Shown here: piece after piece, positions 10,707 to 32,428 of the stretch
Numbering within the stretch: position 1 is the first letter of the stretch
Layout of the letters: every line of letters begins with the position of its first letter
Assembly: GCF_000374565.1 (NCBI RefSeq)
Contig: NZ_KB894711.1
Location: forward strand, 1-47,186
Direction of reading: 5' to 3'
Length of the DNA stretch: 47,186 nt
Source: Siminovitchia fordii DSM 16014 = CIP 108821
GTDB lineage: Bacteria; Bacillota; Bacilli; Bacillales; Bacillaceae_C
Position numbers and translations under genes: made by a program
The notes under the pieces: generated by a model
What the model saw: the letters and a program-made list of their open reading frames with translations, nothing else
Database searches by the model: none
What the model was told of the DNA's origin: nothing

Positions 10707-12113
10707 CTAATCGTTAATATAAAAGATTCTCGTTTCCCTTGTCACTTTTCCAGCCTTGTTTGCTGCTTCAAAGGTGACAACATGGAATCTTTCTTTTAAG
10801 CCTTCATTCAGCTCCAATGATATTGTAGATGTTTTTTTGTCAAAAGCAGGGGTATAGGGGATGCCGTCAACAATGACTCTAAAGCTGTTCGCGTCTATTT
10901 TAGCACCTTTTTCTGTTGTCACTTTAGCGGAAAGAAGCGGCGTTCTATCCTGGATGATCTCTCCCATTTGATACTCCGGTTTAATTGTAGGTCCTTTGCC
11001 AACATTCGCAGGGTTATGCTCAGCTGCCTTCTCCACTTCCTTCAAGACACGAAGCATATTTTTTCCAAGGATTTTTTCTATGTCCTGCTTTGTGTATCCT
11101 CTATCCACTAACTCCTCCGTTAATTTAGGCAGATAGGATACATTTGGGAGATCTTCGGGCAGGGTGGCGCCGTCATAGTCTGAACCGAGTCCAACATGGT
11201 CGATGCCAATCAAATTCACAACATGATCAATATGATCGACAACGTCTGTAATATAAGTGTTGGGTTTATTTGTCAAAAATGCCGGGTAGAAAACGATGTT
11301 GATCACACCGCCATTTTCTTTCAAGGCCTTTAATTGATCATCCGAAAGGTTGCGTTGGTGGTCTTTTATGGCTTTAACACCTGAATGGGAGGCTGCAATA
11401 GGCGCTTTGGAAACTTGAATGACATCCCAGAAAGTACTTTCGGCCATATGGGAAACGTCAATCACCATTCCCAATTTATTCATTTCTTTTGCCACTTCGG
11501 CTCCCAGATCCGTTAAGCCGCCCTCTGAAGGCGTTCTATTCGGATCGTTGTATTCCCTGTTGGCTCCTTCACCAAGTGCATTGGAGTAATTCCAGTTAAA
11601 TCCAATCTCTTTGATTCCCAGATCACGATATTGATGTAAAAGCTCAATCGCATTTTCTTCGTCCATGGAATAAGCACCTTCTATGGTTGGAACGGCTGCT
11701 ATTTTACCGGCATGGACTGTTTTTTCAATTTCTTTTAAAGAAGTTGAAATCTTAAATGTGTCAGGGTTATTTTTCTCTGTCCAATACAGTGCATTGATCA
11801 AGGCAAGCGTTCGACTGATGCTTCGAGGAGTATTATTATAGTATCCGGATGTATAGGCAGCAAAGAAAGGGACGTTGAGGCCTCCTGCCTGAAGTTTGGG
11901 TATGTCAACCTCAAAGGGTGTATCTTTTCCGATGTCCACCTTTGGAAGCCAAGTGCTGGAATCAACAACATTGCTCATGGTGTCGCTGTGGCCGTCTGTA
12001 ATAATAGAATTAAAATGGATTTCTTCCGGCGACATAGGCTTGGCCAAGGCTGAAGTAGAGTAAGAGAGGACAAAAAGAACTGTTAGTACAAGGTAAAACA
12101 GTTTTTTCTTCAA
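10707..12113 (-). CDS. Secreted membrane-dipeptidase family (M19) peptidase
   Basis: A 468-residue protein with a signal peptide (about 1-24, cleavage after ALA). The M19 renal-dipeptidase zinc ligands are visible: DGHSD (about 40-44), the bridging Glu in TIEGAY, IDVSH, AASHSG and GLGSDYDG. The family hydrolyses dipeptides, including some with D-residues. The last 80 residues form a beta-rich extra domain, probably Ig-like, not needed for catalysis. Start is TTG at 12113, supported by AAAGGAGG about 9 bases upstream. A TATAAT box lies about 40 bases upstream. Its neighbours are an amino-acid symporter and two secreted carboxypeptidases, which suggests a role in peptide scavenging. Confidence 0.88.
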   Translation of the reverse strand: MKKKLFYLVLTVLFVLSYSTSALAKPMSPEEIHFNSIITDGHSDTMSNVVDSSTWLPKVDIGKDTPFEVDIPKLQAGGLNVPFFAAYTSGYYNNTPRSISRTLALINALYWTEKNNPDTFKISTSLKEIEKTVHAGKIAAVPTIEGAYSMDEENAIELLHQYRDLGIKEIGFNWNYSNALGEGANREYNDPNRTPSEGGLTDLGAEVAKEMNKLGMVIDVSHMAESTFWDVIQVSKAPIAASHSGVKAIKDHQRNLSDDQLKALKENGGVINIVFYPAFLTNKPNTYITDVVDHIDHVVNLIGIDHVGLGSDYDGATLPEDLPNVSYLPKLTEELVDRGYTKQDIEKILGKNMLRVLKEVEKAAEHNPANVGKGPTIKPEYQMGEIIQDRTPLLSAKVTTEKGAKIDANSFRVIVDGIPYTPAFDKKTSTISLELNEGLKERFHVVTFEAANKAGKVTRETRIFYIND

Positions 12114-12464: not shown

Positions 12465-13703
12465 TTAGACCACTTTATTGGAGCTTTGCTCCAAGGCTAC
12501 GTTTAATTTGTTTTCCGATGTGTTGATAATCACGGCTGCTGAAGCATCTCCCGTGACATTGACAGAGGTTCTGAACATATCTAAGAAGCGGTCCACTCCA
12601 GCTATGAGAGCGATTCCTTCTAAAGGTAAGTTGACAGCGGTTAGCACCATTGTCAGCATCACTAATCCGGCTCCCGGTACACCTGCAGTGCCAATGGATC
12701 CTAATGTAGCGATGAGAATGACCAGAAGAAATTGTTCAAATGTCAGTGAGACGGAGTAAAATTGAGCGATAAATAGGGTTGCAACGCCCATGTAGATTGC
12801 TGTTCCATCCATATTGATGGTTGCGCCCAGCGGTAAGACGAAGCTGCTGACTTCATTGGAAACACCCAGGTTATCTTCGCAGTTTTTCATGCTGACAGGC
12901 AATGTTCCCGAGCTGCTTTGTGTACTGAAGGCTACTACGCTGGCAGGCAAGATTCCTTTGAAAAATTTGATGGGACTCATTTTCCCGAAGGTTTTTACTG
13001 TAAATGAGTAGATGACCACGGCGTGTAAAATGCAGGCGACCCCTACAGAGAGTACCAGTTTGATCAAAGGAAGCAAAACGGAAGCCCCATATTCTCCGAT
13101 AATGGGGGCCATTAAACCGAATATGCCGATGGGGGCAAACTTCATGATGATTCCGGTGATCTTAAGCATTACTTCGGAGAGCCCAATAAAGAAATCCTGA
13201 AGAGGCTGCGCCTTTTTCCCCACCATTGTGATTCCTAACCCGATGAAAATGGCGAAGAAGATAATTTGCAGTATGTTGGCCTCCGCTAAAGCGGCAATAG
13301 GGTTAGTCGGGATGATGTTTAATAAAATATTGATGACGCCTTCTGTCTCAGGGGGAGGGGCTGCTTCAGAGGGGACTGAAATATTGACCCCTTTTCCTGG
13401 AGAAAATATACTGCCGAGAATTAATCCGATAGAAACCGCGCCAAATGTAGTGATTAAAAAATAACCAATGGTTTTACTTCCAATTCTACCTAATTTTTTA
13501 ATATCGCCTGTACTCGCTACTCCCATTACCAAAGTTGATAGGATGAGCGGCACGATAATGAACTTAATCAGGCGTAAAAAAAGGTCGCCCAATGGCTGAA
13601 CAACATTGATGGCAGGTCCAAAAACAATCCCTAAAATGACAGCGATTACAAAAGCGATTAAAATTTGAGTTAATAGTCCTAACCTTGCAATCCTCCTCAT
13701 CAT
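12465..13703 (-). CDS. Dicarboxylate/amino acid:cation symporter (DAACS family)
   Basis: A 412-residue membrane protein of the glutamate/aspartate/C4-dicarboxylate carrier family. The re-entrant loop STQSSSGTLP, the ion-site NMDGTA, the hairpin-2 segment GSIGTAGVPGAG and the helix-8 signature DRFLDMFRTSVNVTGD (Asp and Arg at the substrate site) are all intact. Proteins of this kind import glutamate, aspartate or dicarboxylates with sodium or protons. GAGGAGG lies 4 bases before the first ATG (13703) and 7 before the second (13700), so 13700 is equally likely. The promoter region at 13928-13970 carries a GlnL-type direct repeat, and a GlnK-like kinase is divergently encoded, which points to control by that two-component system. 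Confidence 0.9.
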   Translation of the reverse strand: MMRRIARLGLLTQILIAFVIAVILGIVFGPAINVVQPLGDLFLRLIKFIIVPLILSTLVMGVASTGDIKKLGRIGSKTIGYFLITTFGAVSIGLILGSIFSPGKGVNISVPSEAAPPPETEGVINILLNIIPTNPIAALAEANILQIIFFAIFIGLGITMVGKKAQPLQDFFIGLSEVMLKITGIIMKFAPIGIFGLMAPIIGEYGASVLLPLIKLVLSVGVACILHAVVIYSFTVKTFGKMSPIKFFKGILPASVVAFSTQSSSGTLPVSMKNCEDNLGVSNEVSSFVLPLGATINMDGTAIYMGVATLFIAQFYSVSLTFEQFLLVILIATLGSIGTAGVPGAGLVMLTMVLTAVNLPLEGIALIAGVDRFLDMFRTSVNVTGDASAAVIINTSENKLNVALEQSSNKVV

Positions 13704-13927
13704 ATTTCCTCCTCATTCAAATTGTTCGTTCGAGGTACAAAGGCATGGCAGCCAAGCTTTCCTTACCAATCTTAAGACCCGGATTTCAAGCAAAGGGAGA
13801 TTGGCAACTTAGTCCCGAAAACCTACTGCGAGCTTTTTGCTTTGTAAATTTCCGGAAACTTTACTGATAAGTCCTGCGCTTAAAGATTCATACTATTTAA
13901 ACAACTCCTTTACAAATTTGTTTTTCC

Positions 13928-13970
13928 ATTATAAAATTCGAACTACACTAATAAACAGAAAGTAACAAAA
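13928..13970 (-). promoter_or_regulatory. Symporter promoter with a GlnL-type activator site
   Basis: On the minus strand a TATAAT box (13933-13928) has only a weak -35. Just upstream, at 13970-13955, is TTTTGT-TACT-TTCTGT. This matches, with one mismatch, the direct repeat TTTTGT-N4-TTTTGT known for Bacillus subtilis GlnL (YcbB). A site centred about 40 bases before the start point next to a poor -35 is the classic arrangement for activation. The assignment rests on the encoded GlnL-like regulator at 20414. Confidence 0.6.
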
Positions 13971-14028
13971 TGATCTTGAAATAATTTTCATAGTGAGTTT
14001 CTGGCAAAAAGGAGGCAGTGATTCAGCT

Positions 14029-15372
14029 ATGAGTCTATCGAAAAATAGGGAAATGCAGATTTTTATTTTAATGCTACTCATTGTTCCTCTTGCTGGTGAA
14101 GTAAAATTCTATCCCTTTAACAATACCTTTCGAGTAAGCTTTGGAATGCCTACATTTTTCTTTTTTATATTGATATTGAAGAGGTATCCTGCCATTTTAT
14201 CGGGTGTTTTCGTTGGGTTCTCTGTAGTCGCTTTTCGTACTTTCATAGATATTCAACATTTCCCGCATTCTTTTCAAGCTCATTATCCAACCTTCTTCTA
14301 TTACTTTACCTTTGGTTGTTTATTTTACTTCTTAAAAGTTCGCCGCTTTTATGGCCGGCCTTTGCTAATCGGATCTCTGGGTGTCTTGTTTGATATTTTA
14401 GCAAGCTCAGCTGAGCTCACTTTTCAATACATTGCGTTCCAATCTCCTGTAACTTATGAGGATATACGTAAGGTGAGTATTATCGCCGTTTTCCGGGGTT
14501 TTTTTACCGTGGGCTTTTTTAATTTGATCATGTTATACGAAGCTCAATTGAGGAAAGAGGAGATGCATAAACAGAATGCCAAGCTGGTCATGATTATTTC
14601 CAACCTGTATGAAGAAGCGGTTCATTTACATAAAACTTTGAAAAACAGTGAAAATGTCACAAAGGAAGCCTACAATTTATATCAGCTTTTAAAAGAAATT
14701 GAAGTTAAAAAGACTTGCGTTCCAATCGAAAGGCTCTATCAAATCGCTCTCAAGATTGCCGGGGAGAGCCATGAGGTAAAAAAAGATAATCAAAGAATTT
14801 ATTCGGGGCTCTCAAAGCTGATATCAGATGAGGGCTTTTCGGAATATATGGATACACATGAACTGATGAACATTACCGCACAGGCTAATCAAAAATATGC
14901 GCGGTTATTGGGGAAAAACATTGAAATTTCATTTAATATGATTGGGGAACATCCGAAGTATCATGTGTATAAGGTTCTCTCCATCGTAAATAATCTTGTA
15001 ATCAATTCGATAGAGGCAATTAAAGGTGAGGGAGTTATCAGTATATACGTTTTTAAATATCAAGAAGTTGTTGAATTCCAAATCAGGGATGATGGCCCCG
15101 GGATCGGGTCCAGGCACAGACGGTTTATTTACAAGCCGGGATTTACGACTAAATATGATGAAAATGGAAAATTGTCCACGGGTATTGGACTTACATATGT
15201 AAAAGAGCTCGTTGAAAGCCTCGGTGGGGATATTTCGATGCAAAGCAAGCCGGAGATTACTGGAACTTGTTTTAAAATACGATTGCCCGTCATGAATCTG
15301 GTTCAATCAATGGATCATGGGGAAGATCAGTACGGACACCTGCAAGATGCCGTTGAATTGAAGGTGGAATAA
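14029..15372 (+). CDS. GlnK-like sensor histidine kinase
   Basis: About 447 residues. The N-terminal 180 residues hold about six membrane helices with little extracellular loop, as in the GlnK/YcbA sensor of Bacillus. The cytoplasmic part has a coiled linker with candidate phospho-acceptor histidines (EEAVHLHKTLKNS) and an ATPase domain with N-box NNLVINSIEAIK, G1 DDGPGIG and G2 GIGLTYVKELVESLGG. Its natural partner is the YcbB-domain regulator encoded at 20414, 5 kb away, behind two peptidase genes. Start ATG 14029 follows AAAGGAGG at a slightly long distance; a GTG at 13993 is the alternative. In B. subtilis this system senses glutamine; here glutamate or peptides would also fit. Confidence 0.8.
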   Translation: MSLSKNREMQIFILMLLIVPLAGEVKFYPFNNTFRVSFGMPTFFFFILILKRYPAILSGVFVGFSVVAFRTFIDIQHFPHSFQAHYPTFFYYFTFGCLFYFLKVRRFYGRPLLIGSLGVLFDILASSAELTFQYIAFQSPVTYEDIRKVSIIAVFRGFFTVGFFNLIMLYEAQLRKEEMHKQNAKLVMIISNLYEEAVHLHKTLKNSENVTKEAYNLYQLLKEIEVKKTCVPIERLYQIALKIAGESHEVKKDNQRIYSGLSKLISDEGFSEYMDTHELMNITAQANQKYARLLGKNIEISFNMIGEHPKYHVYKVLSIVNNLVINSIEAIKGEGVISIYVFKYQEVVEFQIRDDGPGIGSRHRRFIYKPGFTTKYDENGKLSTGIGLTYVKELVESLGGDISMQSKPEITGTCFKIRLPVMNLVQSMDHGEDQYGHLQDAVELKVE

Positions 15373-15379
15373 CAAAAAA

Positions 15380-15432
15380 GGGGTCAGACCCCCACAACGT
15401 TAACGCGTTAATGTACCGGGGGTCTGACCCCC
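15380..15432. repeat. GGGGTCAGACCCC-type intergenic repeat hairpin
   Basis: GGGGTCAGACCCCC (15380-15393) and GGGGGTCTGACCCCC (15418-15432) form a nearly perfect inverted pair; each arm is itself palindromic. The loop contains the 12-base palindrome TTAACGCGTTAA. Short repeats with this GGGTCAGACCC core occur between genes in many Bacillaceae. Here it separates convergent genes and may also terminate the kinase transcript. Confidence 0.75.
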
Positions 15433-15463
15433 AAAAAAATTCCCTCCATTGCTGAAGGGAATT
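15433..15463 (-). terminator. Terminator of the large M14 carboxypeptidase gene
   Basis: AATTCCCT (15438-15445) pairs with AGGGAATT (15456-15463); on the minus strand the stem runs into a T-tract (complement of 15433-15439). Confidence 0.8.
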
Positions 15464-15478
15464 CTAAATTCTTAAATA

Positions 15479-18073
15479 CTATTTCCACTGATTGAGTAAA
15501 TAATCTGAGTGTGCCTGTAATATATTATAGGCTTTTTCGGAAATGAAGTTGTTTGATTTATGATTGTTCAGCAGTACTTTGAAGCCTTTCATATGTTTAT
15601 GGGCTTTTTCCGTTAATCCTTTTTCTTCGTAGAGGCTTAGGGCGGTCAGATGCATTATCAGGGATTTGACAGCATTGTTATTTGTGAATTCCCCTTCTTC
15701 CTGGAAGTTTTCTACAAGCTTTTTCATATTTGCCGCACTTATTTCTACCTCTACATCGACACTTTGTTCTTTCTCGGCGTTGCCTTTAACGTCGACGGAA
15801 ATCCAGCGGAACTTGGTATTCTCGTAAACTTTGATCATCTCGCCAGGCTCACGGATATTTGCAGCTTCATAAGTTGGTGAATCGGTTGTTGGAGTGCTTC
15901 CGTCAGTCGTATAGTGAATGCTGGCCGGCTTATTTTGTGAGAATGTAATGTTTACGGAACCATCGGGCTGCTTATCCTTTACAATTTCTGTAGTGGCCGG
16001 CTCATTATCCTTCCCGTACTCCATCGCAATTTCAAACATAGTGATAACACCGCTGGCATACTCTTGATACTGAAGATTTCCTTCCTCCCATGCAGGCTGG
16101 AATCCGCCTGGAGCCAGCCATTTCTGAGCATCTGGGTCCCACTGTTCGCCGCCGACTTCCCATCCGAATGCATAGATGCCATAATTGTTGTAGAGTTCCT
16201 CCCGGACATTGCCTGCGGAGGAATAAAGTACATCGGAAGAGCCTCCAATGTTCCGCGGCTGAACAACAGAGTCACGCAAACTTTTAACATTGGATAAAAT
16301 TTTCTCAGCTATCTGCCAGTAGTACTGTTCATCGCGAAGTGGAGGGCGTGGTGTTGTAATTCTGCCATCCGCTTTGTAGGAGCCAGGCTGCCAGAACAAT
16401 TGGCCTCCATAGCTGTGCACAGTCATAAAAAACTTGATGTTTGAGAAATTTTCTGCAAGCCAGACAACATTCTTCGCTTCAGGCTCAGATAGTTTTCCAG
16501 GGCCGGCGTACGTATCGGATGTACAAACTGTTGACCCTCCGGAATACCCGTCGTAAACTGAACCGACCGAGTAATTTCGGTTAAGGTCGACTCCCCAGTT
16601 ATGCCTGCGCCCGGGATCCGCATCTTCCGGACCGCAATGGTTTGTCATATTCCGCCGCTGCATATTCCGGTCAAAGAAACTATAGTGAGCGCCATCCGGG
16701 TTATTGGATGGGATGATAAAAATGTCTACGTTATCGACGATCTCTTTTGTCTTTTGATCAGTTTCATAGTTTGCCAGTAGCCTTTCGGCTGATTCAAGAG
16801 CTACAAGGGGAGTTACCCATTCGCGTGCATGATCCTGGGCCTGAATCAGGACACCAGGCTTTGAGCCATCGCTATGTTTGCCTATGCGGAGGGCTTTGAT
16901 TGTATATGGCTCACGGGAAATCTCCTCGGGTCCACTCAAGAAGTCGGACAGCTTAGTCGCTGCAGCCTCCTTTACAACTCCACTTCCATTTCCGTTGCGG
17001 TAAAGATTTGCGGTTACTAATGCGCTTGCTTCTGCGTTATTATTAATTGCGTCGACCACTTCTTTTGCCGTCGTGCCAATTTTGCTTGGGTCATTTTTGT
17101 CTGTCGTTAGATGTACAGTGATATCGTTCCCCTTGACCGAGACTGACATTTTATCCCCGTCGGACTGGCCATTCAACGCTACGGAAATATCATTGCCGCC
17201 TTCATGGCCGTATTTTTTTGACGTGACATAGAAAGTACTGTTGAGATCTCCGTTTGCACCGCTTGTTCCATTGCCAAATTGTGCCTGTGCATGCCTGCGA
17301 TAGCCATTCGTTTTGTTTGGCAGCTCAATAATTTCAGTGAGTTCAGGATGTTCCGCTGCTAGTTCTTCAATTCGTTTATACAGCTGTGTTGGATTTTTGT
17401 ATTCATCGGCAAAGGCGCTCTTGTATCCCGGACGATCAATATCGGCTTCAACAGGGTAGAGCCAGTCTTTCACCTCTGCGCTGCTTTCGGTGCCGAGCGA
17501 GCTTGAAACTTTGATTGTATCAGGCCGGGGCCCGTCGACCTTAGCAAGTACCCGGTGGTACATATAAACACCGGAATCTCTATAAAGTTCCATCTTTTGA
17601 GACTTGTCACCCCAATGCAGCGTTAAATCTGCTCCATCTTCAGCTGTCGTTTTTGCTTCTACTGACAAGAAGGCTTGTCCATGAGTGGTGAACCAGTCCA
17701 CTCTTCCGATGGTGAGTTTATCTTTAGCGGGTGTCGATGCTAACGAACGCTTTGCCTTTTTCGGGGCAGCCCGTTTAGGATCATTAGCTAATATGACGCC
17801 ATATTCAGGCAGTGTGTTCAGTTGTTCTTTTGTCAGTAAGGCATCCACCTCAATGCCATCGGGCACGCGCTTGACACCGCCCGCAAGATCATATCCCTTG
17901 TTTTGCAGGGTATCCAAGACATCGCTGCCAGGTACTAAAATCCTGACTAGCTCACCCTCTTCCACTACAGGAGCGGCAGCGGGTTTAGGCTTCTCTTTGT
18001 TGTCAGCTAATGTACTGGTCGCGATTGAAAATAGCAGAATCATTGATAATAAGGCAACCATTGTTTTTTTCAT
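15479..18073 (-). CDS. Secreted M14 zinc carboxypeptidase with FIMAH tail
   Basis: An 864-residue protein with a signal peptide (about 1-23). Residues about 220-690 are an M14 carboxypeptidase: zinc ligands His415 and Glu418 in HAREW, His553 in VHSYGG, substrate loop NPDGAHYSF and catalytic Glu639 in FGWEVGGE. The catalytic domain is interrupted at about 276-385 by a beta-rich insertion (GNDISVALNG, then DITVHLTTD, then AKEVVDAINN) of a kind seen in phage and surface proteins. After it come a chitobiase-C-like beta domain (HYTTDGSTPTTDSPTY, about 700-775) and a helical FIMAH domain (about 780-864), likely for attachment to the cell or matrix. It should release C-terminal amino acids outside the cell. 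Start ATG is at 18073. Confidence 0.88.
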   Translation of the reverse strand: MKKTMVALLSMILLFSIATSTLADNKEKPKPAAAPVVEEGELVRILVPGSDVLDTLQNKGYDLAGGVKRVPDGIEVDALLTKEQLNTLPEYGVILANDPKRAAPKKAKRSLASTPAKDKLTIGRVDWFTTHGQAFLSVEAKTTAEDGADLTLHWGDKSQKMELYRDSGVYMYHRVLAKVDGPRPDTIKVSSSLGTESSAEVKDWLYPVEADIDRPGYKSAFADEYKNPTQLYKRIEELAAEHPELTEIIELPNKTNGYRRHAQAQFGNGTSGANGDLNSTFYVTSKKYGHEGGNDISVALNGQSDGDKMSVSVKGNDITVHLTTDKNDPSKIGTTAKEVVDAINNNAEASALVTANLYRNGNGSGVVKEAAATKLSDFLSGPEEISREPYTIKALRIGKHSDGSKPGVLIQAQDHAREWVTPLVALESAERLLANYETDQKTKEIVDNVDIFIIPSNNPDGAHYSFFDRNMQRRNMTNHCGPEDADPGRRHNWGVDLNRNYSVGSVYDGYSGGSTVCTSDTYAGPGKLSEPEAKNVVWLAENFSNIKFFMTVHSYGGQLFWQPGSYKADGRITTPRPPLRDEQYYWQIAEKILSNVKSLRDSVVQPRNIGGSSDVLYSSAGNVREELYNNYGIYAFGWEVGGEQWDPDAQKWLAPGGFQPAWEEGNLQYQEYASGVITMFEIAMEYGKDNEPATTEIVKDKQPDGSVNITFSQNKPASIHYTTDGSTPTTDSPTYEAANIREPGEMIKVYENTKFRWISVDVKGNAEKEQSVDVEVEISAANMKKLVENFQEEGEFTNNNAVKSLIMHLTALSLYEEKGLTEKAHKHMKGFKVLLNNHKSNNFISEKAYNILQAHSDYLLNQWK

Positions 18074-18484
18074 TCATTTTCACTCCCGAAAAATATTTAG
18101 ACGCCCTTTGATTCTTTTTGCAATGATTCTTGTGTCTTAAGCCTGGATTCGTGATATAGATTGTTAAAATAGTAGAAATCCACTGTTGTCTCTATGCATT
18201 TTGAATTTTTTTCTGATAAATGGAAAGCAGGCTCATTCATTTGTTTTCAGCATTTTCATTTGATTTGATGTTTCCGGTTCTTCTATTGTTACTGGCAATG
18301 TTCCTGCATATTCGCTGTGCTCAATGCGACACAGCAGACAGCTCCCAATATAAAATGGGCCGATTTCCGGCTATTTCTGCAGGAGTACCGAGTTCCTAAG
18401 GAAATCCCCAGCTGAAAAAACAGGTGGGGATTAATTACTGCAAGGGCAACTGGACTTAAAACACTAATCTCATAATCTATAAAA
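18074..18484. other. Intergenic stretch between the two M14 genes
   Basis: It holds the leader of the large M14 gene. A near-perfect inverted repeat (AATCCCCAGCTG at 18403-18414 and CAGGTGGGGATT at 18421-18432) lies past the stop of the upstream M14 gene and may act as a 3' hairpin for it, though it has no clear T-run. No gene seen. Confidence 0.5.
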
Positions 18485-19900
18485 CTATTTCTTTTTCCAT
18501 CTTTCTAGTAAAGTGTTAGCATCGCTGTTGAGTCTGTTATAAGCTTCTTGTTCGATTTGCCCTTTTTCCCTCTGTTTATCAAGAGCAACTTTAAATCCTT
18601 CCAAGTGCTTGACCATTTTCTTGCTGTTCTCTTGCTTTTCATAAACTTCCAGAGACTTTAAATGGTTCGCTAATGAACGGGCAAGGCCATTATTCTTAAA
18701 CTGACCCTCTTTTGCAAAGCGCTCTAAAACATCTCTCATGTCAGTGATGTTGTCAGTCCAATATCTTGGTATTTTGGTAAGAAAGTCGTCGCCATTCAAA
18801 TCATCGATAGAACCATCCGCCATGTGCGAAATAATCCCCCATAACCCGTTTTCCACACGGTTCACCAGTTTTTGATCATAGCCAACTTGGGGTTGTTGTC
18901 CAGGCATTTCGAATAGAACAGTTGCTGATCCATTAAGAGCGAAGGCAGATCTTGCTTGTCCGGGATAATCACGTTCCTGAAAGTGAACATACTGAGATAC
19001 CCCAGGTTCCTCTATATCGGAGAATTCCTTTACGCCAAGGGCAGCAGCCAACGCATAGCGTTTGGACTTTTCCTGATCCAATAATGGCCAAGCATCATAT
19101 TTCGTGCTGTCTTCAGGTCCTAATGGCGGGAAATCAATTGCAATGGTGACATCCTCACCTGTTTTATTAAGCTTTGGAGCACCCATGTGATGCAGATCGA
19201 CGAAAGCTTCTACTTTACCGAACTCTTTTTGCAGATCTACATAAAGATCTCTAAGAAGTTGGGACTCTTTCGTTATGAAAAAACCAAAATCAAGAGTCGT
19301 TCCAGGTAAATCTTCAGGTACGACTTGATAGTTCAAATCAGCATGAAAATCCCGATTGATGTCAAAGCCTCGATTCCTCTCATTGTAGTACCAAGCCGGA
19401 GCAGCGCCAGCCAGTTGTGGGTAGGCAGTAACAACTTCATCCCACGGAAATACATTCTGTCTTTGTGGAAATTCGAGACCGTCAACGTTAAAACGTGGAA
19501 TGGTAACGATCGTAACATTGTCACGAACAGATTGGGCGAAGGAGCTATCGCTCGTTCCAAGGTAGTCTAATATTTCCACAATTGCCTCGCCGCCACTCTT
19601 TTCGTTACCATGTATGCTGCCATTGATTAATAACACTTGATCACCCGTACCTACACGGGCAGACATGATTTCAGTTCCTTGTGATGAATGGCCGGCAACG
19701 TCAACCTTAACCCTGCCGGAACTAGCCTTTTCAATTTCGTCTAGTTTTTGGAGAAATTCATCATTGGTCATCCAATCCCGTTCAATTGGATCTTGTACAG
19801 CTTGAGCAGATATTTCACTTACCGGGATCAACATTAACAGTAAGGCTGCAGCAAAAAACATCAATTTCTTCCATATATCCCTTTTCACAATATCCTTCAT
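18485..19900 (-). CDS. Secreted M14 family carboxypeptidase with FIMAH tail
   Basis: A protein of 471 residues, starting at the ATG at 19900, which has GAAGGAGG 8 bases upstream (an ATG nine codons earlier lacks a site). A signal peptide or anchor covers about residues 10-33. The M14 zinc motif HGNEK (His97, Glu100), a second ligand region DLHHMG (about 235-240) and the catalytic Glu in VLFEMPG (about 331) are present. The C-terminal 85 residues form a FIMAH domain like that of the neighbouring large M14 protein, so both may be displayed at the same site. The two peptidases share too little sequence outside this tail to be a recent duplication. The promoter region has a weaker GlnL-like repeat. 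Confidence 0.85.
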   Translation of the reverse strand: MKDIVKRDIWKKLMFFAAALLLMLIPVSEISAQAVQDPIERDWMTNDEFLQKLDEIEKASSGRVKVDVAGHSSQGTEIMSARVGTGDQVLLINGSIHGNEKSGGEAIVEILDYLGTSDSSFAQSVRDNVTIVTIPRFNVDGLEFPQRQNVFPWDEVVTAYPQLAGAAPAWYYNERNRGFDINRDFHADLNYQVVPEDLPGTTLDFGFFITKESQLLRDLYVDLQKEFGKVEAFVDLHHMGAPKLNKTGEDVTIAIDFPPLGPEDSTKYDAWPLLDQEKSKRYALAAALGVKEFSDIEEPGVSQYVHFQERDYPGQARSAFALNGSATVLFEMPGQQPQVGYDQKLVNRVENGLWGIISHMADGSIDDLNGDDFLTKIPRYWTDNITDMRDVLERFAKEGQFKNNGLARSLANHLKSLEVYEKQENSKKMVKHLEGFKVALDKQREKGQIEQEAYNRLNSDANTLLERWKKK

Positions 19901-20413
19901 AATATATCCTCCTTCAATACTATTCATTTAAAAGAAGCTCCTCGTTTTCCCGATTACGATGAAATCCTGTAAATTACTTTAATAACCCCTTTCACTGCTC
20001 TTTTAAAAGCATTTTTTTGACAACATAAAATTCGCTTATATTACAAATAATCAGAAAAATAAAGTAAGGTTTATCCCCTCCATTTCATTGTCACTGTTTC
20101 CCCCTGTTGGTCTGCTGGGGCAGACCGTAAAAAATGATGACCTCCTCTCCCGCTAAATTTTGAGATTATACGTGCTGTAAATATATGTAATGGTAAATGG
20201 TGGACTACATAATGATACAGTAATCTACAATAAATTCGGTTCATAAAGATAATTGGTTATATTGACGCGTATCCTAAGAAGTACATGAGCAGCGTTTACG
20301 ATTACCTCAGGAGCCCATAACTTTTTACAATCAAAAACTTCCATCGAGGAATAAAGGATTATAAAGAAAGATGTCAAATATTATTAGTAATCTCTCAGGC
20401 AGGAGGGGTGCAA
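19901..20413. other. Divergent promoter region between M14 and GlnL-like genes
   Basis: It contains the candidate activator site at 20043-20058, a short hairpin (GGTCTGC at 20109-20115 and GCAGACC at 20120-20126) and presumably the promoter of the response regulator. No gene seen. Confidence 0.5.
20022..20058 (-). promoter_or_regulatory. Candidate GlnL-like site and promoter of the 18485-19900 peptidase
   Basis: On the minus strand TTTTCT-GATT-ATTTGT (20058-20043) matches TTTTGT-N4-TTTTGT at 10 of 12 positions. It is followed by CGAATTTTATGTT, which shares CGAATTTTAT with the symporter promoter. The spacing to that box differs by 6 bases between the two promoters, so this is a weaker call. 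Confidence 0.35.
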
Positions 20414-21355
20414 ATGCATTTTTATATAGTTGATGATGATGAGGCCATTCGTTCCATATTGGCAGAAATTATCGAAGATGAGGATTTGGGGGAAACGGTA
20501 GGGGAAGCAGAAAATGGCGCTCAAGTAGATCTCTCTTTTTTGAACTTAAAAAAGATAGACATCGTATTGATTGATTTAATAATGCCTGTAAGGGATGGGA
20601 TAGAAACGATCCGCCAGATCGGCCCTTCGTTCCCGGGGAAATTTATCATGATTTCGCAGGTGGAGACAAAGGAATTAATAGCTGAGGCCTATTCACTTGG
20701 AATAGAATACTATATCATGAAGCCCATTAATAGGTTTGAAGTTCTCTCAGTGATAAAAAAGGTGAGCGAACGTATTCAATTGGAGAGATCAATTGCTAAT
20801 ATACATAAGTCATTAAGTAACGTAATGAACGTAGGACCTCGTTTACAATTAAATGAAAAAAGAAGTGTTCTAAGGGAAGATAAACTGACTGCTTCCGGTC
20901 GATTCCTCTTATCAGAATTAGGTGTGATTGGGGAAAACGGCTGCGAGGATTTGTTGGAAATTTTAAACTTTTTGTATAAAAGTGAAGGGAATGAAGGATA
21001 TCAGACTAACCCGCCCTTACTCAAAGATATTTTTATTTTCCTTGCCCAAACAAAATATGGTTCTGCTGCACCCCATTCCAAAATTAGCAGGGAGGTCAAA
21101 GCTTCCCAGCAGCGTGTTCGAAGAATTGTTTACCAGTCTTTAAACCACCTGGCCGCACTAGGTGTAACAGATTTTGCCAATCCAGCGTTCCAGGATTACG
21201 CCTCCAAGTTTTTTGATTTTAAAGTGGTTCGAAAAAGGATGATGGAAATAAAAAGCGGATCCTCTCCATCAACTACTGGGACCCGAATCAATACGAAAAG
21301 ATTTATTCAAGTGCTTTATTATGAAGTTAAACGTCTGGCCTTTGAAAATAGATAG
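20414..21355 (+). CDS. GlnL-like response regulator (receiver plus YcbB domain)
   Basis: A 313-residue protein. The receiver has DDDE at 7-10, phospho-acceptor Asp54 in LIDLIMPVRDG and Lys103 in IMKP. Residues about 155-310 match the YcbB/GlnL DNA-binding domain (ISREVKASQQRVRRIVYQSL holds the likely recognition helix). The best family match is B. subtilis GlnL, which with GlnK controls glutamine use. The cognate kinase is probably the one at 14029. ATG 20414 has AGGAGG 7 bases upstream; the GTG two codons earlier is too close to it. It is likely the activator of the symporter and perhaps of the peptidase genes. Confidence 0.85.
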   Translation: MHFYIVDDDEAIRSILAEIIEDEDLGETVGEAENGAQVDLSFLNLKKIDIVLIDLIMPVRDGIETIRQIGPSFPGKFIMISQVETKELIAEAYSLGIEYYIMKPINRFEVLSVIKKVSERIQLERSIANIHKSLSNVMNVGPRLQLNEKRSVLREDKLTASGRFLLSELGVIGENGCEDLLEILNFLYKSEGNEGYQTNPPLLKDIFIFLAQTKYGSAAPHSKISREVKASQQRVRRIVYQSLNHLAALGVTDFANPAFQDYASKFFDFKVVRKRMMEIKSGSSPSTTGTRINTKRFIQVLYYEVKRLAFENR

Positions 21356-24164: not shown

Positions 24165-24200
24165 TTTTAAAAAACAAAATGGTTTAAATAGGTGATTAAT

Positions 24201-24920
24201 ATGAACGGCGGCAGTAGTCTTTTTAACAGCGTGATTGTGGATATTGAAAAAAAGATAAACGATGGGGCTCTAAAAGAAGGGGATAAATTACCTTCGGAAA
24301 GAGAATTAACGCGAACTTATGAGATCAGCAGGCATGGAGTTAGACAAGCTCTAACAGTTCTTAAGGAAAAGGGGCTGATAAAAATCACTCCGGGAAAGGG
24401 TGCCTATGTCACCTCTTACAATGAAGATATTTTAACGGAGTCTTTTAAGAGAGTTGCCCAAAAATATGATTCTACTATAGAAGAGATTTTAGAGGTGAGG
24501 GAGGAGCTGGAATTATCGGTCATCTCTAAAGCGGTTTTGAAGGCAACTCCGGAAGATATAGATAAGCTTATCGAGATATGCACTGAAATGGATCAAGTGA
24601 TGGATGTAGGCGGTTTTTTAGAGTGTGATTTGAAATTTCATAAGGCTTTAGCTGACTCTTCACAAAATCGTATATTTGCCGCCTTGGTTCATTCTTTTTT
24701 TGAAATGACGGAAGAATCCCCGTTTTCATTGACCAAGTATACTAGTAACTTTTTGGATATTATTAGCAAGGCGCAGGAGCAGCATTGGGTGATGATTGAA
24801 GCATTAAAAACCCGAAATCAGGATTTGGCTATCCAAACGATGACAGAGCATATGGAATTGTTTAGAGAGGAAGTTGATTTTTTGAGGAGTAAAAATATTA
24901 ACTATAAGGAGATGAGGTAA
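24201..24920 (+). CDS. GntR-family (FadR subgroup) transcription regulator
   Basis: A 239-residue protein with a GntR winged helix (KLPSERELTRTYEISRHGVR, then GLIKITPGKGAYVTS, about 25-75) and a C-terminal all-helical FCD ligand domain (about 85-230). The FCD metal-type histidines appear in CDLKFHKALAD and TEHMELF. FadR-subgroup proteins usually sense organic acids or amino-acid derivatives. ATG 24201 has AGGTG about 6 bases upstream; the GTG at 24192 lies inside that site. It is the first gene before hyuAB, with its own palindromic operator, so it likely controls the hydantoinase genes in response to their substrate or product. Confidence 0.85.
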   Translation: MNGGSSLFNSVIVDIEKKINDGALKEGDKLPSERELTRTYEISRHGVRQALTVLKEKGLIKITPGKGAYVTSYNEDILTESFKRVAQKYDSTIEEILEVREELELSVISKAVLKATPEDIDKLIEICTEMDQVMDVGGFLECDLKFHKALADSSQNRIFAALVHSFFEMTEESPFSLTKYTSNFLDIISKAQEQHWVMIEALKTRNQDLAIQTMTEHMELFREEVDFLRSKNINYKEMR

Positions 24921-25306
24921 CCGTAGCTGTAGGCTTGTTGTTATCCAATGAAAGGAGGAATTTTCTATGGAGAAAAAACTCTCGAAATTTCACCCAGGTA
25001 TCCCGGCAACCATGAGCATAATCTTCGTTTTCATTACAGGTATTATTTGTGCTAAATGACTCAATATCATGATGAACCTTTAACTTCATTCAGTAGAAAT
25101 TTCCCACATCTGTAAGTGGTGAGTTGAAAGCATATAGGTATTCCATTCAGTGGGGGTTCAAACCCCGGCTGAATAAAGTTAAAGCCTTGCGGCGGATGCC
25201 TCAGATTTCAGACGAAATTTATCGAGTGGAGTTCGATAAAATCTGGGCGCAAATACGCCAAGGCGCACTTGATTACATCATTAGTTTTTATAAGGGAGGA
25301 ACATCA
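24921..25306. other. GntR-hyuA spacer
   Basis: Besides the 30-residue peptide, the hyuA frame stays open for 61 codons upstream of the true start (from 25124), with protein-like sequence such as EIYRVEFDKIWAQIRQGALD. It has no ribosome binding site of its own and may be a relic of another gene. Confidence 0.45.
24967..25059 (+). CDS. 30-residue single-helix membrane peptide
   Basis: ATG at 24967 follows AAAGGAGGAATTTTCT, a strong ribosome binding site. The 30-residue product starts MEKKLSKFHPGIPATM and ends in a hydrophobic helix (SIIFVFITGIICAK). It sits between the GntR regulator and hyuA. Peptides of this size beside catabolic genes are often small subunits of sodium symporters, but no transporter gene follows here, so its partner is unknown or lost. 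It was found by its binding site and has no recognised family. Confidence 0.55.
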   Translation: MEKKLSKFHPGIPATMSIIFVFITGIICAK

Positions 25307-27340
25307 ATGAGTAATTATATTAGTGGTATAGATGTAGGTGGTACATTTACTGATTTTGTTTCGTTTGATCCAGAAACAAAGGAAATGAAGGTTTGGAAGA
25401 ACCTAACAACTCCTGGGCACCCTATTAATGGGGTACTAACGGGTTTAAGCGAATTTGAGAATGTAGAAGATATTGACCAAATCCGGCATGGTACAACGAT
25501 TGCAACTAATGCCATTTTAGAAAGAAAAGGAGCAGAGATTGCTTATATTACCACTAAGGGCTTCAAAGATGTCCCTTTTATCCAGAGAGCCAATAGAAAG
25601 TCACATTATGATTTAAGCTGGATCAAGCCCAAACCGCTTGTGAAGCGGCGGAATTGCTTTGAAATTAATGAGCGTCTAACACATAAAGGGGAAACTTTAG
25701 CCGAAATTGATGTAGAAGAAGTAAAACAAGTGGCGGAGCAAATTAAAGAGAGAGGAAACATAGATGCAGTTGCCATTAGTACACTCTATTCTTATGTAGA
25801 CCCTAAACATGAAGAAAAGTTAAGGAGCCTCTTAGAAGAATTCCTGCCTGGCATGCCAATTTCCATTTCTTATGATGTTCTTCCGAAATGGAAAGAGTAT
25901 GAGAGAGGAAGCACTGTCATCGCTGATGCTTATATTAAACCAATTGTTTCTTCTTATTTAGACCAATTAAGTGAGCGCTTTCAAGAGAAGGATATCACGA
26001 AAAATGTGGGTATTATGAAGTCAAATGGCGGGATTATGACTTTGGCTGCTACTAAAAAAGCTCCGATCAATACGGCTGTTTCGGGTCCTACAGGCGGAGT
26101 TGTAGGGGCAAAGAGGATTGTGGAACAATGCAACATTGACCATCTCGTTACTCTAGATATGGGCGGCACCAGTACAGATGTCGCTATCATTAAAAATGGG
26201 AACGAAGAACTGACAACCAATTTTGAAATCGAATGGGGTATTCCAATTCAGGTACCGATGATAGATATCAGAACGATCGGCGCAGGCGGCGGAAGCATAG
26301 CTTGGATTGATAATGGCGGCATGCTTAACGTTGGGCCGGAAAGTGCGGGGGCAGATCCTGGACCTGTATGTTATGAGAGAGGCGGAGAAAATCCAACAGT
26401 AACAGATGCCAACCTTATTTTAGGAAGGTTAAGCCCGGATAACTTTCTGGGCGGGTCCATGAAGATTGATTATGATGCGGCCTACCAAGCCTTGGATAGA
26501 TTGGGGAAAAAACTGAACATGTCAGCTGAAGAGACAGCTGATTCCATTATTAAAATTGCTAACAACAGCATGGTAGGGGCACTGAGAATGGTATTGGTAG
26601 AGGAAGGGCATGATCCCAGGGATTTCACATTGATGAACTTTGGCGGAGCCGGTCCGTTGCATGCAAGTGACCTCATGGAGATTGCAGAGATTCCAAGAGC
26701 TGTGATCCCTATGCATCCTGGACAGTTTTCCGCTGTCGGCTTCATGTATTCAGATGCCCGTGTTGATCTCCAGCGCACAGTTCAAATGACCTCTAAAAAA
26801 TTTGATATTTCCAGAGCGAATGAAGTTTTCCAGCAACTGAAGAACGCAGGTTTAGAGGATTTATCTTCACAGGGTTATACGGATAACTACAACATTATCA
26901 CATCGATTGAAATGCGCTATCTTGGCCAGAACTATGAGTTGGATATTCCTTTTAACGAAGAGGAAATCAATGAAGAAAACGTCCAAACCATATGGAATAC
27001 ATTCCATTCCATGCACGATGATCGATTTGGTTTCAAGATTGATGGAGAAGTGATGGAAGTCGTTACATTTAAAGTAACGATTATCAGTAAAACGGACAAA
27101 CCTGCTGCCAAAAAAATTGCTAGAGCAAACGGAAGCCAAGCTGTGCAAAAGGATGAGAGAATGGTTCGTTTTGATCAAGAGTCTCTTATGACGACTATTT
27201 ATGATCGGGAAACTCTTTTAGACGGCCATGAAATTGTGGGACCGGCCATTATTGAAGAAAATGCTTCTTCCACAATAGTAGGTCCACAGCATAAGTTAAC
27301 GGTTGATTCCTTTGGAAATATGCATATCGAAAAAAGATAG
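25307..27340 (+). CDS. hyuA: Hydantoinase/oxoprolinase family protein, subunit A
   Basis: A 677-residue protein. It begins with the actin/ASKHA-type phosphate loop YISGIDVGGTFTDF and has the second loop LVTLDMGGTSTDVAII and RTIGAGGGSIAWID, as in HyuA, the N-terminal half of ATP-dependent 5-oxoprolinase and acetone carboxylase beta. These proteins use ATP to activate a cyclic amide or ketone. The start is the ATG at 25307 after AAGGGAGGAACATCA; an open 61-codon extension upstream is not normal for the family. It is followed 13 bases later by hyuB. The substrate may be a hydantoin, 5-oxoproline or a related lactam; sequence alone does not decide. Confidence 0.9.
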   Translation: MSNYISGIDVGGTFTDFVSFDPETKEMKVWKNLTTPGHPINGVLTGLSEFENVEDIDQIRHGTTIATNAILERKGAEIAYITTKGFKDVPFIQRANRKSHYDLSWIKPKPLVKRRNCFEINERLTHKGETLAEIDVEEVKQVAEQIKERGNIDAVAISTLYSYVDPKHEEKLRSLLEEFLPGMPISISYDVLPKWKEYERGSTVIADAYIKPIVSSYLDQLSERFQEKDITKNVGIMKSNGGIMTLAATKKAPINTAVSGPTGGVVGAKRIVEQCNIDHLVTLDMGGTSTDVAIIKNGNEELTTNFEIEWGIPIQVPMIDIRTIGAGGGSIAWIDNGGMLNVGPESAGADPGPVCYERGGENPTVTDANLILGRLSPDNFLGGSMKIDYDAAYQALDRLGKKLNMSAEETADSIIKIANNSMVGALRMVLVEEGHDPRDFTLMNFGGAGPLHASDLMEIAEIPRAVIPMHPGQFSAVGFMYSDARVDLQRTVQMTSKKFDISRANEVFQQLKNAGLEDLSSQGYTDNYNIITSIEMRYLGQNYELDIPFNEEEINEENVQTIWNTFHSMHDDRFGFKIDGEVMEVVTFKVTIISKTDKPAAKKIARANGSQAVQKDERMVRFDQESLMTTIYDRETLLDGHEIVGPAIIEENASSTIVGPQHKLTVDSFGNMHIEKR

Positions 27341-27353
27341 GAGTGTAAACAAT

Positions 27354-29033
27354 ATGGATGTAGTATCAGTTAATATTATTAACTCGTCAATGGTATCCGT
27401 CTGTCGTGAAATGGGTATTACACTTATGAAGACTTCCTATTCAACCATTTTCAATGAAGCGTTGGACTTTACCTGCGGGCTCGCCAATGCGAAAGGTGAA
27501 CTTATTGCCGTGGCAGATTACTGCCCGGCCATGATTGGCGGGATGCCGACTTTGATAGAAAACTGCATAAAAGAGATCCCGGCATCGGAAATGAATCCGG
27601 GTGATGTAATCCTTCACAATGATCCATACAGAGGTGGACTGCATCTTCCGGAGCACACCGTTTTTAAACCTATTTTTATTGACGGTGAAGTGGTGGCTTA
27701 TGCGGTTGCCATTGGACACCTGGCCGAAGTCGGGGGCATGACTCCGGGAGGATTCGCCGGAGAGGCTACTGAAATTTTCCAAGAAGGACTTAGGCTTCCT
27801 CCTGTCAAGATCGTCAAAGAAGGAAAAGATAACGAAGAAGTATGGAAAATCATGCTAGCAAACGTGAGAACGCCACGATATAACTTTGGAGATTTAAGGG
27901 CTCTTATCAGTGCCGCTGATCTCGGTGAAGAGAGATTAAAAGGGTTGATTCATAAATATGGAAAAGACTTTTTCATGAAAACAGTGGATGACTTAATGGA
28001 TTACTCAGAGCGCCGGATGCGTGCAGAAATTAAAGAAATTCCAAATGGTTTATATCAATTTGAGGATTATGTTGAAAATGATGGAATTGAAAATAAAGTT
28101 TTTACAATTAAAGCCAATGTGTATGTTGAAGACGAGGAAGTCATTATCGATTATGAGGGGACTTCCCCGCAAGCCAGGGGTCCTATCAATGCAACGTATG
28201 GAGTGTCGGTGTCAGCAGCTTATAATGCGATGCTAAACTTGACGGATGCTTCCATTCCCAAAAACTCTGGCTGCTTTAGGCCCATCAAAGTAGTGGCGCC
28301 TCCAGGAACAGTAGTAAACGTTGATTACCCTGCACCGGAAGTAGGCGGTAATACAGAAACTCATCCAAGGATTGCATTTGCCGTGCTTGGGGCATTCTCT
28401 AAAGCCGTTCCGGAAAAAGTCATTGCCTGCGAGGGCGGTACCCATCTCAATTTTGTTTTTGGCGGGTATCATGATGACTATGAGGAGTATTATGTTTGTT
28501 ATGATTTGGAAGCAGTCGGATGGGGGGCCCGTCCATATGCTGACGGAAATGACATGGTTGACTCGATCAATGGAAACTGCCGAACAACGCCTGTTGAAGT
28601 GTTTGAAACCAGATTTCCTTGGCTCGTAGAGTCGTTTCATTTAAACCAAGATTCTGGTGGTGCAGGAAAATATCGCGGAGGTCTGGGCGCAGAGAAAATA
28701 CTAAAATGTAATGCCGATTTAATCACAATCAGCCAAATGACAGATCGACATCATATTGCTCCTTATGGATTATTTGAAGGAAAAGAAGGCGGATTTGGAG
28801 CCACATTGGTTCAGAAAAATGGCGAAGAAGATTGGAAAGACGTTGTCGAGGGCTATGGCAAGGTTTCGTCCAGTAAGTTCTCAAATATCCCGATCAGACG
28901 AGGAGACAGAGTCAAAATCGTCACACCGGGCGGTGGCGGCTATGGTTCACCGAAAGAGAGAGATAGAGACATGATCAAGGAAGATGTACTGGATGGATTT
29001 ATATCTAAAAAAGCATCGGAGACAATCTATTAA
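27354..29033 (+). CDS. hyuB: Hydantoinase/oxoprolinase family protein, subunit B
   Basis: A 559-residue protein, the usual partner of HyuA. Family features: ILHNDPYRGGLHLPEHTVF and GHLAEVGGMTPGG near residues 85-135, RGPINATYGVS, PAPEVGGNTETHPRI, and the C-terminal QDSGGAGKYRGGLG and TPGGGGYG. It corresponds to the C-terminal half of eukaryotic 5-oxoprolinase and to acetone carboxylase alpha. The start is the ATG at 27354, after GATAGGAGTG, which yields the standard N-terminus MDVVSVNIINSSM. Together HyuA and HyuB form the ATP-dependent ring-opening enzyme. Confidence 0.9.
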   Translation: MDVVSVNIINSSMVSVCREMGITLMKTSYSTIFNEALDFTCGLANAKGELIAVADYCPAMIGGMPTLIENCIKEIPASEMNPGDVILHNDPYRGGLHLPEHTVFKPIFIDGEVVAYAVAIGHLAEVGGMTPGGFAGEATEIFQEGLRLPPVKIVKEGKDNEEVWKIMLANVRTPRYNFGDLRALISAADLGEERLKGLIHKYGKDFFMKTVDDLMDYSERRMRAEIKEIPNGLYQFEDYVENDGIENKVFTIKANVYVEDEEVIIDYEGTSPQARGPINATYGVSVSAAYNAMLNLTDASIPKNSGCFRPIKVVAPPGTVVNVDYPAPEVGGNTETHPRIAFAVLGAFSKAVPEKVIACEGGTHLNFVFGGYHDDYEEYYVCYDLEAVGWGARPYADGNDMVDSINGNCRTTPVEVFETRFPWLVESFHLNQDSGGAGKYRGGLGAEKILKCNADLITISQMTDRHHIAPYGLFEGKEGGFGATLVQKNGEEDWKDVVEGYGKVSSSKFSNIPIRRGDRVKIVTPGGGGYGSPKERDRDMIKEDVLDGFISKKASETIY

Positions 29034-29057
29034 AATATTTAGGAAGGGACTGTTCTC

Positions 29058-29252
29058 ATGAAGTTTTCAAATAACGGTTACTATGTCGAAAAATATGAGA
29101 AATGTTCTGTATGCGGAAAGCTGGTATATGAAGAACGTATAGAACAAGTAAACATAAAAGAACAACCGGCATTATTTTGCTCAAATTGGTGTGTAGAGTG
29201 GGAAAAGAAGAGAGAAAAGATTAAGCAGGAAGCTTTTGTAGAGTCAAATTAA
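29058..29252 (+). CDS. 64-residue Cys-rich (zinc-ribbon-like) protein
   Basis: A small protein with two cysteine pairs, CSVCG (about 16-20) and CSNWC (about 41-45), that could bind one zinc. It ends in a Lys/Glu-rich helix. AGGAAGGGACTGTTCTC precedes the ATG, and it lies 24 bases after hyuB and directly before the operon terminator, so it is the last gene of the hyu operon. It may be a small subunit of the HyuAB enzyme, in the way acetone carboxylase has a small zinc-containing gamma subunit; that is analogy, not a sequence match I can prove. Confidence 0.65.
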   Translation: MKFSNNGYYVEKYEKCSVCGKLVYEERIEQVNIKEQPALFCSNWCVEWEKKREKIKQEAFVESN

Positions 29253-29267
29253 TATAGGGGTTTAGGT

Positions 29268-29301
29268 AAAAGCAAGGGCCGAGGGGTTCTTGCTTTTTTT
29301 G
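29268..29301 (+). terminator. Terminator of the hyu operon
   Basis: AAAAGCAAG (29268-29276) pairs with CTTGCTTTT (29289-29297) and continues as TTTT. Confidence 0.85.
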
Positions 29302-29307
29302 AAAAGT

Positions 29308-32410: not shown

Positions 32411-32428
32411 ATGATTCAGCCTCACTTT

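What the first reader, a model, noticed from the sequence alone, without database searches (positions are those of the whole stretch)
12465..21355. A GlnK/GlnL-type system wrapped around secreted peptidases and a symporter
The sensor kinase (14029) and the YcbB-domain regulator (20414) look like a GlnK/GlnL pair but are separated by two secreted M14 carboxypeptidases, and the kinase diverges from a DAACS symporter. A GlnL-type direct repeat lies at the symporter promoter and a weaker one at a peptidase promoter. In B. subtilis the pair controls glutaminase and a glutamine transporter. Here it may control digestion of external peptides and uptake of the released glutamate or aspartate, a new use of this regulator.
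Basis: partly seen in the sequence, partly recalled or inferred. Interest (0 to 1): 0.72.

Follow-up and report, generated by a model that had tools for sequence, protein, structure and literature searches.

The report
Acidic-amino-acid sensor controlling peptidase and symporter
A relative of Bacillus appears to use a variant of a known glutamine-sensing switch to turn on, together, an enzyme that trims proteins outside the cell and a pump for aspartate or glutamate, and the DNA signature that reveals this also marks targets of the same kind of switch in many other bacteria.

Summary
The five genes are real. Kinase and YcbB-domain regulator form a GlnK/GlnL-family pair, split here by two secreted M14 carboxypeptidases; in 72 of 73 other loci the pair is contiguous. 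In Siminovitchia thermophila a symporter-M14 unit diverges from a contiguous kinase-regulator unit, so peptidase and symporter are conserved partners. A site model trained on 30 other promoters (three 10-bp repeats ending 13 nt before a -10 box) finds two strong sites in the window: at the symporter (13926-13970, 25.0 bits) and the small M14 gene (20188-20232, 24.6); next best 9.4. An acidic ligand/product is favoured: the symporter groups with aspartase-linked ones; the large M14 has Arg at specificity position 255, as in carboxypeptidase O, where 27 of 27 homologues have Ala; the sensor has the aspartase-type residues at the three positions fixed in both groups. But at some other discriminating positions and in overall identity the sensor is nearer the glutaminase group. 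All inferred; no experiments. New variant of a known kind.

The parts
12465..13703 (-). DAACS/SDF symporter, probably for aspartate/glutamate
   Evidence: PF00375 1.1e-137; best solved relative is a reconstructed aspartate transporter, 460 bits; residues aligned to GltPh D394, R397, N401, D405 kept (numbering and roles recalled); clade with aspartase-linked symporters, support 1.0
13926..13970 (-). Operator/promoter of the symporter: three 10-bp repeats, last GTAG 13 nt before TATAAT
   Evidence: 25.0 bits with a model that excluded window and L005; 0 of 150 shuffled windows reach 24.6
14029..15372 (+). Membrane sensor histidine kinase of the GlnK group (GTG at 13993 also possible); HEVKKD box whose H is kept in 91 of 91 kinases
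   Evidence: HATPase_c; sensor residues
15380..15431 (.). Long inverted repeat (GGGGTCAGACCCCC...GGGGGTCTGACCCC), possible two-way terminator between kinase and large M14
   Evidence: fold -37.4 kcal/mol; sequence
15479..18073 (-). Large secreted M14 carboxypeptidase with FIMAH domain; Arg at position 255 (bovine CPA numbering). Regulation by this system not shown
   Evidence: PF00246 and PF22888; nearest solved chains CPA2 (86 bits) then CPO (73 bits); Arg against Ala in 27 of 27 homologues
18485..19927 (-). Small secreted M14 peptidase with FIMAH domain; probable true start ATG at about 19900 (GGAGG before it, by eye)
   Evidence: PF00246, PF22888; 60% identical to the M14 of L005; sequence
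19945..20063 (-).
   Evidence: local alignment score 57 against 13848-13969; 0 of 200 shuffles, maximum 43; above all 188 control comparisons, of which the S. thermophila orthologous gap gives 52 and the next 43
20188..20232 (-). Operator/promoter of the small M14 gene: triple repeat and -10-like TACCAT
   Evidence: 24.6 bits; 0 of 150 shuffled windows
20414..21355 (+). Response regulator: receiver plus YcbB DNA-binding domain
   Evidence: PF00072 and PF08664; sister of the L005 regulator, support 0.974

Best explanation
A two-component system of the GlnK/GlnL (YcbA/YcbB) superfamily that most likely senses an external acidic amino acid (aspartate or glutamate) and, through a three-repeat operator whose last unit sits at the -35 position, activates two promoters: one for an aspartate/glutamate symporter and one for a secreted M14 carboxypeptidase, possibly with read-through into a second M14 carboxypeptidase predicted to prefer acidic C-termini. 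Released acidic residues would be both inducer and imported product, a feed-forward scavenging loop. Shown by sequence: genes, domains, the two operators, and the same symporter-M14-kinase-regulator set in S. thermophila. Inferred: ligand, activation rather than repression, enzyme specificity, read-through. The split arrangement may have arisen by tandem duplication of a symporter-M14-operator-kinase-regulator block with complementary gene loss.
For: S. thermophila L005: symporter (66% identity) and small-M14 orthologue (59%) run one way, 116 bp apart, divergent from contiguous kinase and regulator, with one 35.2-bit operator between. A model trained without window and L005 picks in 47 kb only the symporter and small-M14 promoters (shuffles). 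A pattern written from these three sites has two further hits in the 4.5-Mb genome, with 2-3 mismatches, against 4 in the reversed control; in five genus-mates it hits once, at the L005 locus, and not in the four that lack this regulator type (control: 3 hits in 3 genomes). Kinase and regulator each group with their L005 counterparts (1.0, 0.974). Sensor residues 103/138/168 are Y/S/R as in 24 of 24 aspartase-linked kinases, not F/D/H as in 18 of 18 glutaminase-linked ones. Symporter clade and residues. Large M14: Arg255; a frog CPO with Arg255 cleaves a Glu-Glu substrate and not Phe-Ala or Phe-Phe (PMC9925722, passages).
Against: No expression, binding or transport data. Only two genomes show the M14 link. 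Sensor evidence is mixed: of 12 positions that separate the glutaminase and aspartase groups, window is glutaminase-like at 43, 62, 185, 187 and 207 and like neither at 61; mean sensor identity is 43.9% to glutaminase-linked and 40.1% to aspartase-linked kinases; R168 is shared by all 47 other non-glutaminase kinases, so only S138 points to the aspartase group in particular. The Arg255 enzyme has no operator of its own, is absent from the L005 locus, and a -16.4 kcal/mol hairpin without a T-run lies between the M14 genes. CPO also removes polar residues (PMC6214572, passages). Small-M14 specificity could not be assigned (poor model). The window operators score lower than L005's and most training sites. 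No clear remnants of lost genes.
Confidence: 0.6

Rival explanations
1. It is an ordinary GlnK/GlnL in its signal: the ligand is glutamine, and the symporter and peptidases are targets for glutamine/peptide nitrogen use.
For: After L005 the kinase is closest to glutaminase-linked kinases (49.9%), also in the sensor part, and shares their residue at five discriminating positions. A passage of PMC2743287 says glutamine triggers glnT through this pair in B. subtilis.
Against: In kinase and joint trees it is outside the 23-member clade holding all 18 glutaminase-linked pairs (support 0.97, 0.955). It lacks F103, D138, H168 of all 18. No glutaminase at the locus; the genome's one PF04960 gene is on C3 with no site.
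Confidence: 0.2
2. The regulator controls only the symporter and the small M14; the large M14 is an unrelated neighbour.
For: No site upstream of the large M14; it is missing at the L005 locus; its homologues found in the genus lie elsewhere.
Against: It lies directly downstream of the small M14 on the same strand, shares the FIMAH domain, and has the Arg255 that fits the symporter.
Confidence: 0.4
3. Kinase and regulator no longer work together; the regulator answers to another kinase, for example the paralogue on C13.
For: The pair is 5 kb apart while 72 of 73 others are contiguous; a paralogous pair exists.
Against: Both proteins keep the conserved catalytic residues, each is sister to its L005 partner, and both operators are intact.
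Confidence: 0.08
4. The signal is peptides or C4-dicarboxylates rather than free acidic amino acids.
For: Some aspartase-linked relatives have a DcuA-type C4-dicarboxylate carrier.
Against: The symporter keeps residues aligned to D394 and R397 of GltPh (roles recalled); the DcuA-linked loci all carry aspartase (5 of 5), which points to aspartate.
Confidence: 0.12

Closest known systems
GlnK-GlnL (YcbA-YcbB) of Bacillus subtilis, controlling glsA-glnT
   Different: Different clade in kinase and joint trees, different sensor residues at three fixed positions, targets are an acidic symporter and M14 peptidase; pair split; operator seen here as three repeats
Unnamed YcbB-family pairs next to SDF symporter + aspartate ammonia-lyase (L054, L059, L089, L090, L100, L106)
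   Same: Divergent symporter of the same clade (support 1.0), same kind of operator, same residues at 103, 138, 168
   Different: Second target is aspartase, not an M14 peptidase; kinase and regulator contiguous; the kinases and regulators themselves do not group with the window's
Vertebrate carboxypeptidase O (M14A)
   Same: Arg at specificity position 255 in the large M14
   Different: Bacterial, with FIMAH and chitobiase-like C-terminal domains; distant overall (73 bits; CPA2 scores higher, 86 bits)

Membership tests
YcbB-domain (PF08664) two-component systems | Receiver plus YcbB domain regulator | tested here: met
   PF00072 1.2e-19 and PF08664 3.7e-44
YcbB-domain (PF08664) two-component systems | Partner membrane kinase of the GlnK type next to it | tested here: inconclusive
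   Homologous kinase present but 5 kb away; contiguous in L005
YcbB-domain (PF08664) two-component systems | Repeat operator at target promoter (a trait derived here, not a published definition) | tested here: met
   25.0 and 24.6 bits; held-out loci with a pair: 47 of 58 at 18 bits or more, many related to training loci; background 1 site in about 458 kb after removing copies of the window and L005
GlnK/GlnL proper (glutamine, glsA-glnT) | Clade membership with glutaminase-linked pairs | tested here: not met
   Kinase and joint trees: outside (clade support 0.97, 0.955). Regulator tree unresolved: the glutaminase-linked regulators form no clade there
GlnK/GlnL proper (glutamine, glsA-glnT) | Glutaminase and glutamine carrier as target | tested here: not met
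   Targets are symporter and M14; glutaminase is on contig C3 without a site
GlnK/GlnL proper (glutamine, glsA-glnT) | Response to glutamine | not testable with these tools
   Needs reporter assays; sensor residues give mixed signs
Acidic amino acid DAACS symporter | Substrate residues D394, R397, T398, N401 (GltPh) | tested here: met
   DMFRTSVN aligned with GltPh DMGRTMVN; numbering and roles recalled
CPO-like acid-specific M14 | Zn ligands, Glu270, Tyr248 and basic residue 255 | tested here: met
   Residues in register; activity not testable here

The most novel reading that the evidence does not exclude
YcbB-family systems form one large set of amino-acid sensors that share a three-repeat promoter-embedded operator and carry a ligand code in the membrane sensor (D138/H168 glutamine, S138/R168 aspartate, N138/R168 other). 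In Siminovitchia one member has recruited secreted carboxypeptidases, one of them re-tooled to acid specificity by an Ala-to-Arg change at position 255, into an outside-digest-and-import loop that induces itself with its own product.
Probability: 0.38. Interest if true: 0.7.

Novelty: new variant of a known kind. Interest (0 to 1): 0.58.

Why it matters
If true it turns one studied switch (glutamine in B. subtilis) into a predictable family: the operator gives targets and sensor residues suggest ligands, for many Bacillales. It also offers a case where enzyme, transporter and sensor specificity can each be predicted from sequence and tested separately, and a testable path for how a scavenging circuit is assembled by duplication, loss and an active-site change.

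Tried and rejected
Remnants of lost genes in the four intergenic gaps: none convincing. One search printed only 30 rows; the full rerun gives 158 rows from 18 query proteins, best E 0.014 for an unrelated L005 protein; the L005 symporter matches the gap between the M14 genes on the expected strand at E 0.056, which is no better than that chance level. So the duplication-and-loss history rests on promoter similarity and gene order. M19 dipeptidase 10707-12113 as part of the system: not supported; no site, a -16.1 kcal/mol hairpin follows the symporter, no M19 gene near the pair in L005. Small-M14 specificity by solved structures and AlphaFold (pLDDT 43.9): no answer; no fold search was made. 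Other M14-linked pairs: none in 17 further loci. Sodium coupling of the symporter: left open, since its best solved relative is described as reaching its high-affinity state without sodium. iqtree trees timed out, so FastTree support is quoted. Literature: nine searches; the listings of 7, 39, 40, 70, 84 and 85 showed no title or abstract start on YcbB-family control of aspartase or peptidase genes; I read passages of four papers only, most subscription papers are not held, and the founding GlnK-GlnL paper could not be opened.

Full report
What is there. The window is a whole contig (C27) of a 4.5-Mb genome in 45 contigs. Its genus contains S. thermophila: the record of L005 and contig C1 of G005 have the same length and the same hit position. 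The five genes are present as described: an SDF/DAACS symporter (-), a membrane histidine kinase (+), two secreted-looking M14 peptidases that both end in a FIMAH domain (-), and a receiver-YcbB regulator (+). Better starts, judged by eye from ribosome-binding sites, are 14029 (kinase), 20414 (regulator) and about 19900 (small M14).

Context in relatives. PF08664 occurs in 10 of 34 genomes of the family and 59 of 299 sampled genomes of the order, own genome included in both. I fetched the surroundings of 9 of 9 family hits in other genomes (one stretch, L048, was cut before the YcbB domain, but L005 covers that place), 60 of 79 order hits outside the own genome, six loci of a contig collection, the paralogue of the own genome and 17 further kinase loci plus three M14 loci. 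In the first batch (77 stretches with the window) pairs were assigned in 74 including the window; L004, L006 and L048 dropped out because my ORF caller missed the regulator or it was cut off. By ORF order kinase and regulator are contiguous in 72 of 73 others; L093 has a 78-aa ORF between. Targets seen are glutaminase with a carrier, SDF symporter with aspartase, DcuA with aspartase, SDF with aspartase and malic enzyme, a gene set that by size looks like an ABC transporter, or an SDF symporter alone. An M14 gene within three ORFs of the pair occurs in 1 of 73 others (L005), and none was seen anywhere in 17 later loci.

The key relative. In L005 (S. thermophila) symporter and M14 run together, 116 bp apart, and diverge from kinase and regulator.

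The operator. Divergent promoters (39 intergenic regions) mostly share a direct repeat. A 45-bp model was trained on 30 of them; window, L005, six loci whose divergent gene was no recognised target and one near-duplicate were left out, but several training sites are still close relatives, and a few training promoters have poor matches (L089 -2.1, L108 4.1, L100 7.6 bits). The model shows not two but three units of TTnnGTAG with 10-bp period, the last GTAG 13 nt before a -10-like hexamer, so the last unit sits where a -35 box would be, the geometry of an activator site (inference). In the window it gives 25.0 bits at 13926-13970 and 24.6 at 20188-20232, facing symporter and small M14; the next best of 47 kb is 9.4. 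None of 150 shuffled windows reached 24.6 (maximum 17.5). Held-out test: of 60 loci with a pair that were not used in training, 49 have a site of 18 bits or more, or 47 of 58 without window and L005; many are relatives of training loci, and the 18-bit line was set after seeing scores. Eight of the 11 that fail belong to the separate clade with the symporter downstream, the paralogue of this genome among them. In 100 other loci 5 sites appeared in 473,650 bases; 4 are copies of the window or L005 sites, leaving 1. A pattern written from the window and L005 sites finds, beyond those, two weak hits in the whole genome against 4 in the reversed control; in five genus-mates it finds one site, in G005 at this locus, with 3 control hits in 3 genomes.

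History. The gap upstream of the small M14 (19945-20063) resembles the symporter promoter region (13848-13969): score 57, 0 of 200 shuffles (maximum 43), and above all 188 control comparisons, of which the orthologous S. thermophila gap gives 52 and the next 43. The order symporter-operator-kinase, then M14-operator-regulator, is what one expects if a block ordered as in L005 was duplicated in tandem and complementary genes were lost. No convincing gene remnants were found, so this remains a hypothesis.

Ligand. Comparing 12 glutaminase-linked with 18 aspartase-linked kinases listed 12 sensor or linker positions that separate the groups. Three are fixed in both groups, 103, 138 and 168, and stay so with six more loci of each (F, D, H in 18 of 18; Y, S, R in 24 of 24). 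Window and L005 have Y, S, R. Against this: R168 is found in all 47 other kinases and Y103 in 35 of them, so these two say 'not glutaminase type' rather than 'aspartase type'; S138 is the more telling one (6 of 47 others). At positions 43, 62, 185, 187 and 207 the window has the residue usual in the glutaminase group, at 61 that of neither, at 44, 48 and 74 one seen in the aspartase group; mean identity over the sensor is 43.9% to glutaminase-linked and 40.1% to aspartase-linked kinases. Window and L005 pair up in kinase (1.0), regulator (0.974) and joint (1.0) trees. In kinase and joint trees the 18 glutaminase-linked members fall in a 23-member clade without them (0.97, 0.955); in the regulator tree they form no clade. 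The exact sister group is unresolved.

Transport. In a tree of 50 symporters, the window's forms a clade with L005's, six aspartase-linked symporters and L086 (support 1.0). Its best solved relative (460 bits) is a reconstructed ancestor also solved with bound L-aspartate (PMC12668577, passages). It keeps residues aligned to GltPh D394, R397, N401, D405 and the NMD motif. The own genome has an aspartase elsewhere (C7) without a site near it.

Peptidases. The large M14 keeps zinc and catalytic residues; between Tyr248 and Glu270 there is no gap, so its Arg lies at position 255. Passages of PMC9925722 key to specificity, basic in acid-specific CPO, with other pocket positions contributing, and report that a frog CPO with Arg255 cleaves a Glu-Glu substrate but not two others; passages of PMC6214572 add that CPO also removes polar residues. 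All 27 homologues above the cut-offs have Ala there; three further pocket positions also differ, 203, 243 and 268, the first placed by counting from His196. The eight homologues found in the genus outside the window are longer and lie elsewhere. The small M14 has relatives in 62 of 397 order genomes, own included; three of those surroundings were read and show no pair. Its specificity is unknown.

Judgement. The system is a GlnK/GlnL-family circuit. Its link to the symporter and the small M14 is well supported by sequence. That its theme is acidic amino acids is supported by the symporter and by the large M14, and in part by the sensor. The link to the large M14 is not shown. No experiment was available.

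Noticed in passing
G000 contig C13:71557-72408 (L003 8278-11819): A second YcbB pair in the same genome, contiguous, followed by another SDF symporter; the model finds no site there (6.1 bits at best), so its operator may differ and keep the two systems apart.
   Followed up: partly
window 15380-15431: Long inverted repeat GGGGTCAGACCCCC...GGGGGTCTGACCCC, possibly a dispersed repeat used as a two-way terminator; not counted in the genome.
   Followed up: partly
window 10707-12113: M19 dipeptidase next to the symporter, same strand, separated by a hairpin; none near the pair in L005.
   Followed up: partly
L054, L059, L089, L090, L100, L106, L088, L095, L101, L105, L108: YcbB-family pairs divergent from a carrier plus aspartate ammonia-lyase, a likely aspartate-utilisation circuit not described in the listings I saw.
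   Followed up: partly
L069, L070, L073, L074, L077, L079, L083: YcbB-family pairs downstream of what may be an amino-acid ABC transporter gene set (judged from gene sizes only), with triple-repeat sites.
   Followed up: no
window 15479-18073 and 18485-19927: Both M14 enzymes share a C-terminal FIMAH domain, a name found in no held paper; in a poor model of the small one this part is the most confident and is helical.
   Followed up: no
window 24192-36902: GntR-like regulator and hydantoinase A-like gene (both by eye), hydantoinase B, electron transfer flavoproteins, FAD oxidoreductase and an ornithine cyclodeaminase-like gene: a possible separate catabolic cluster.
   Followed up: no
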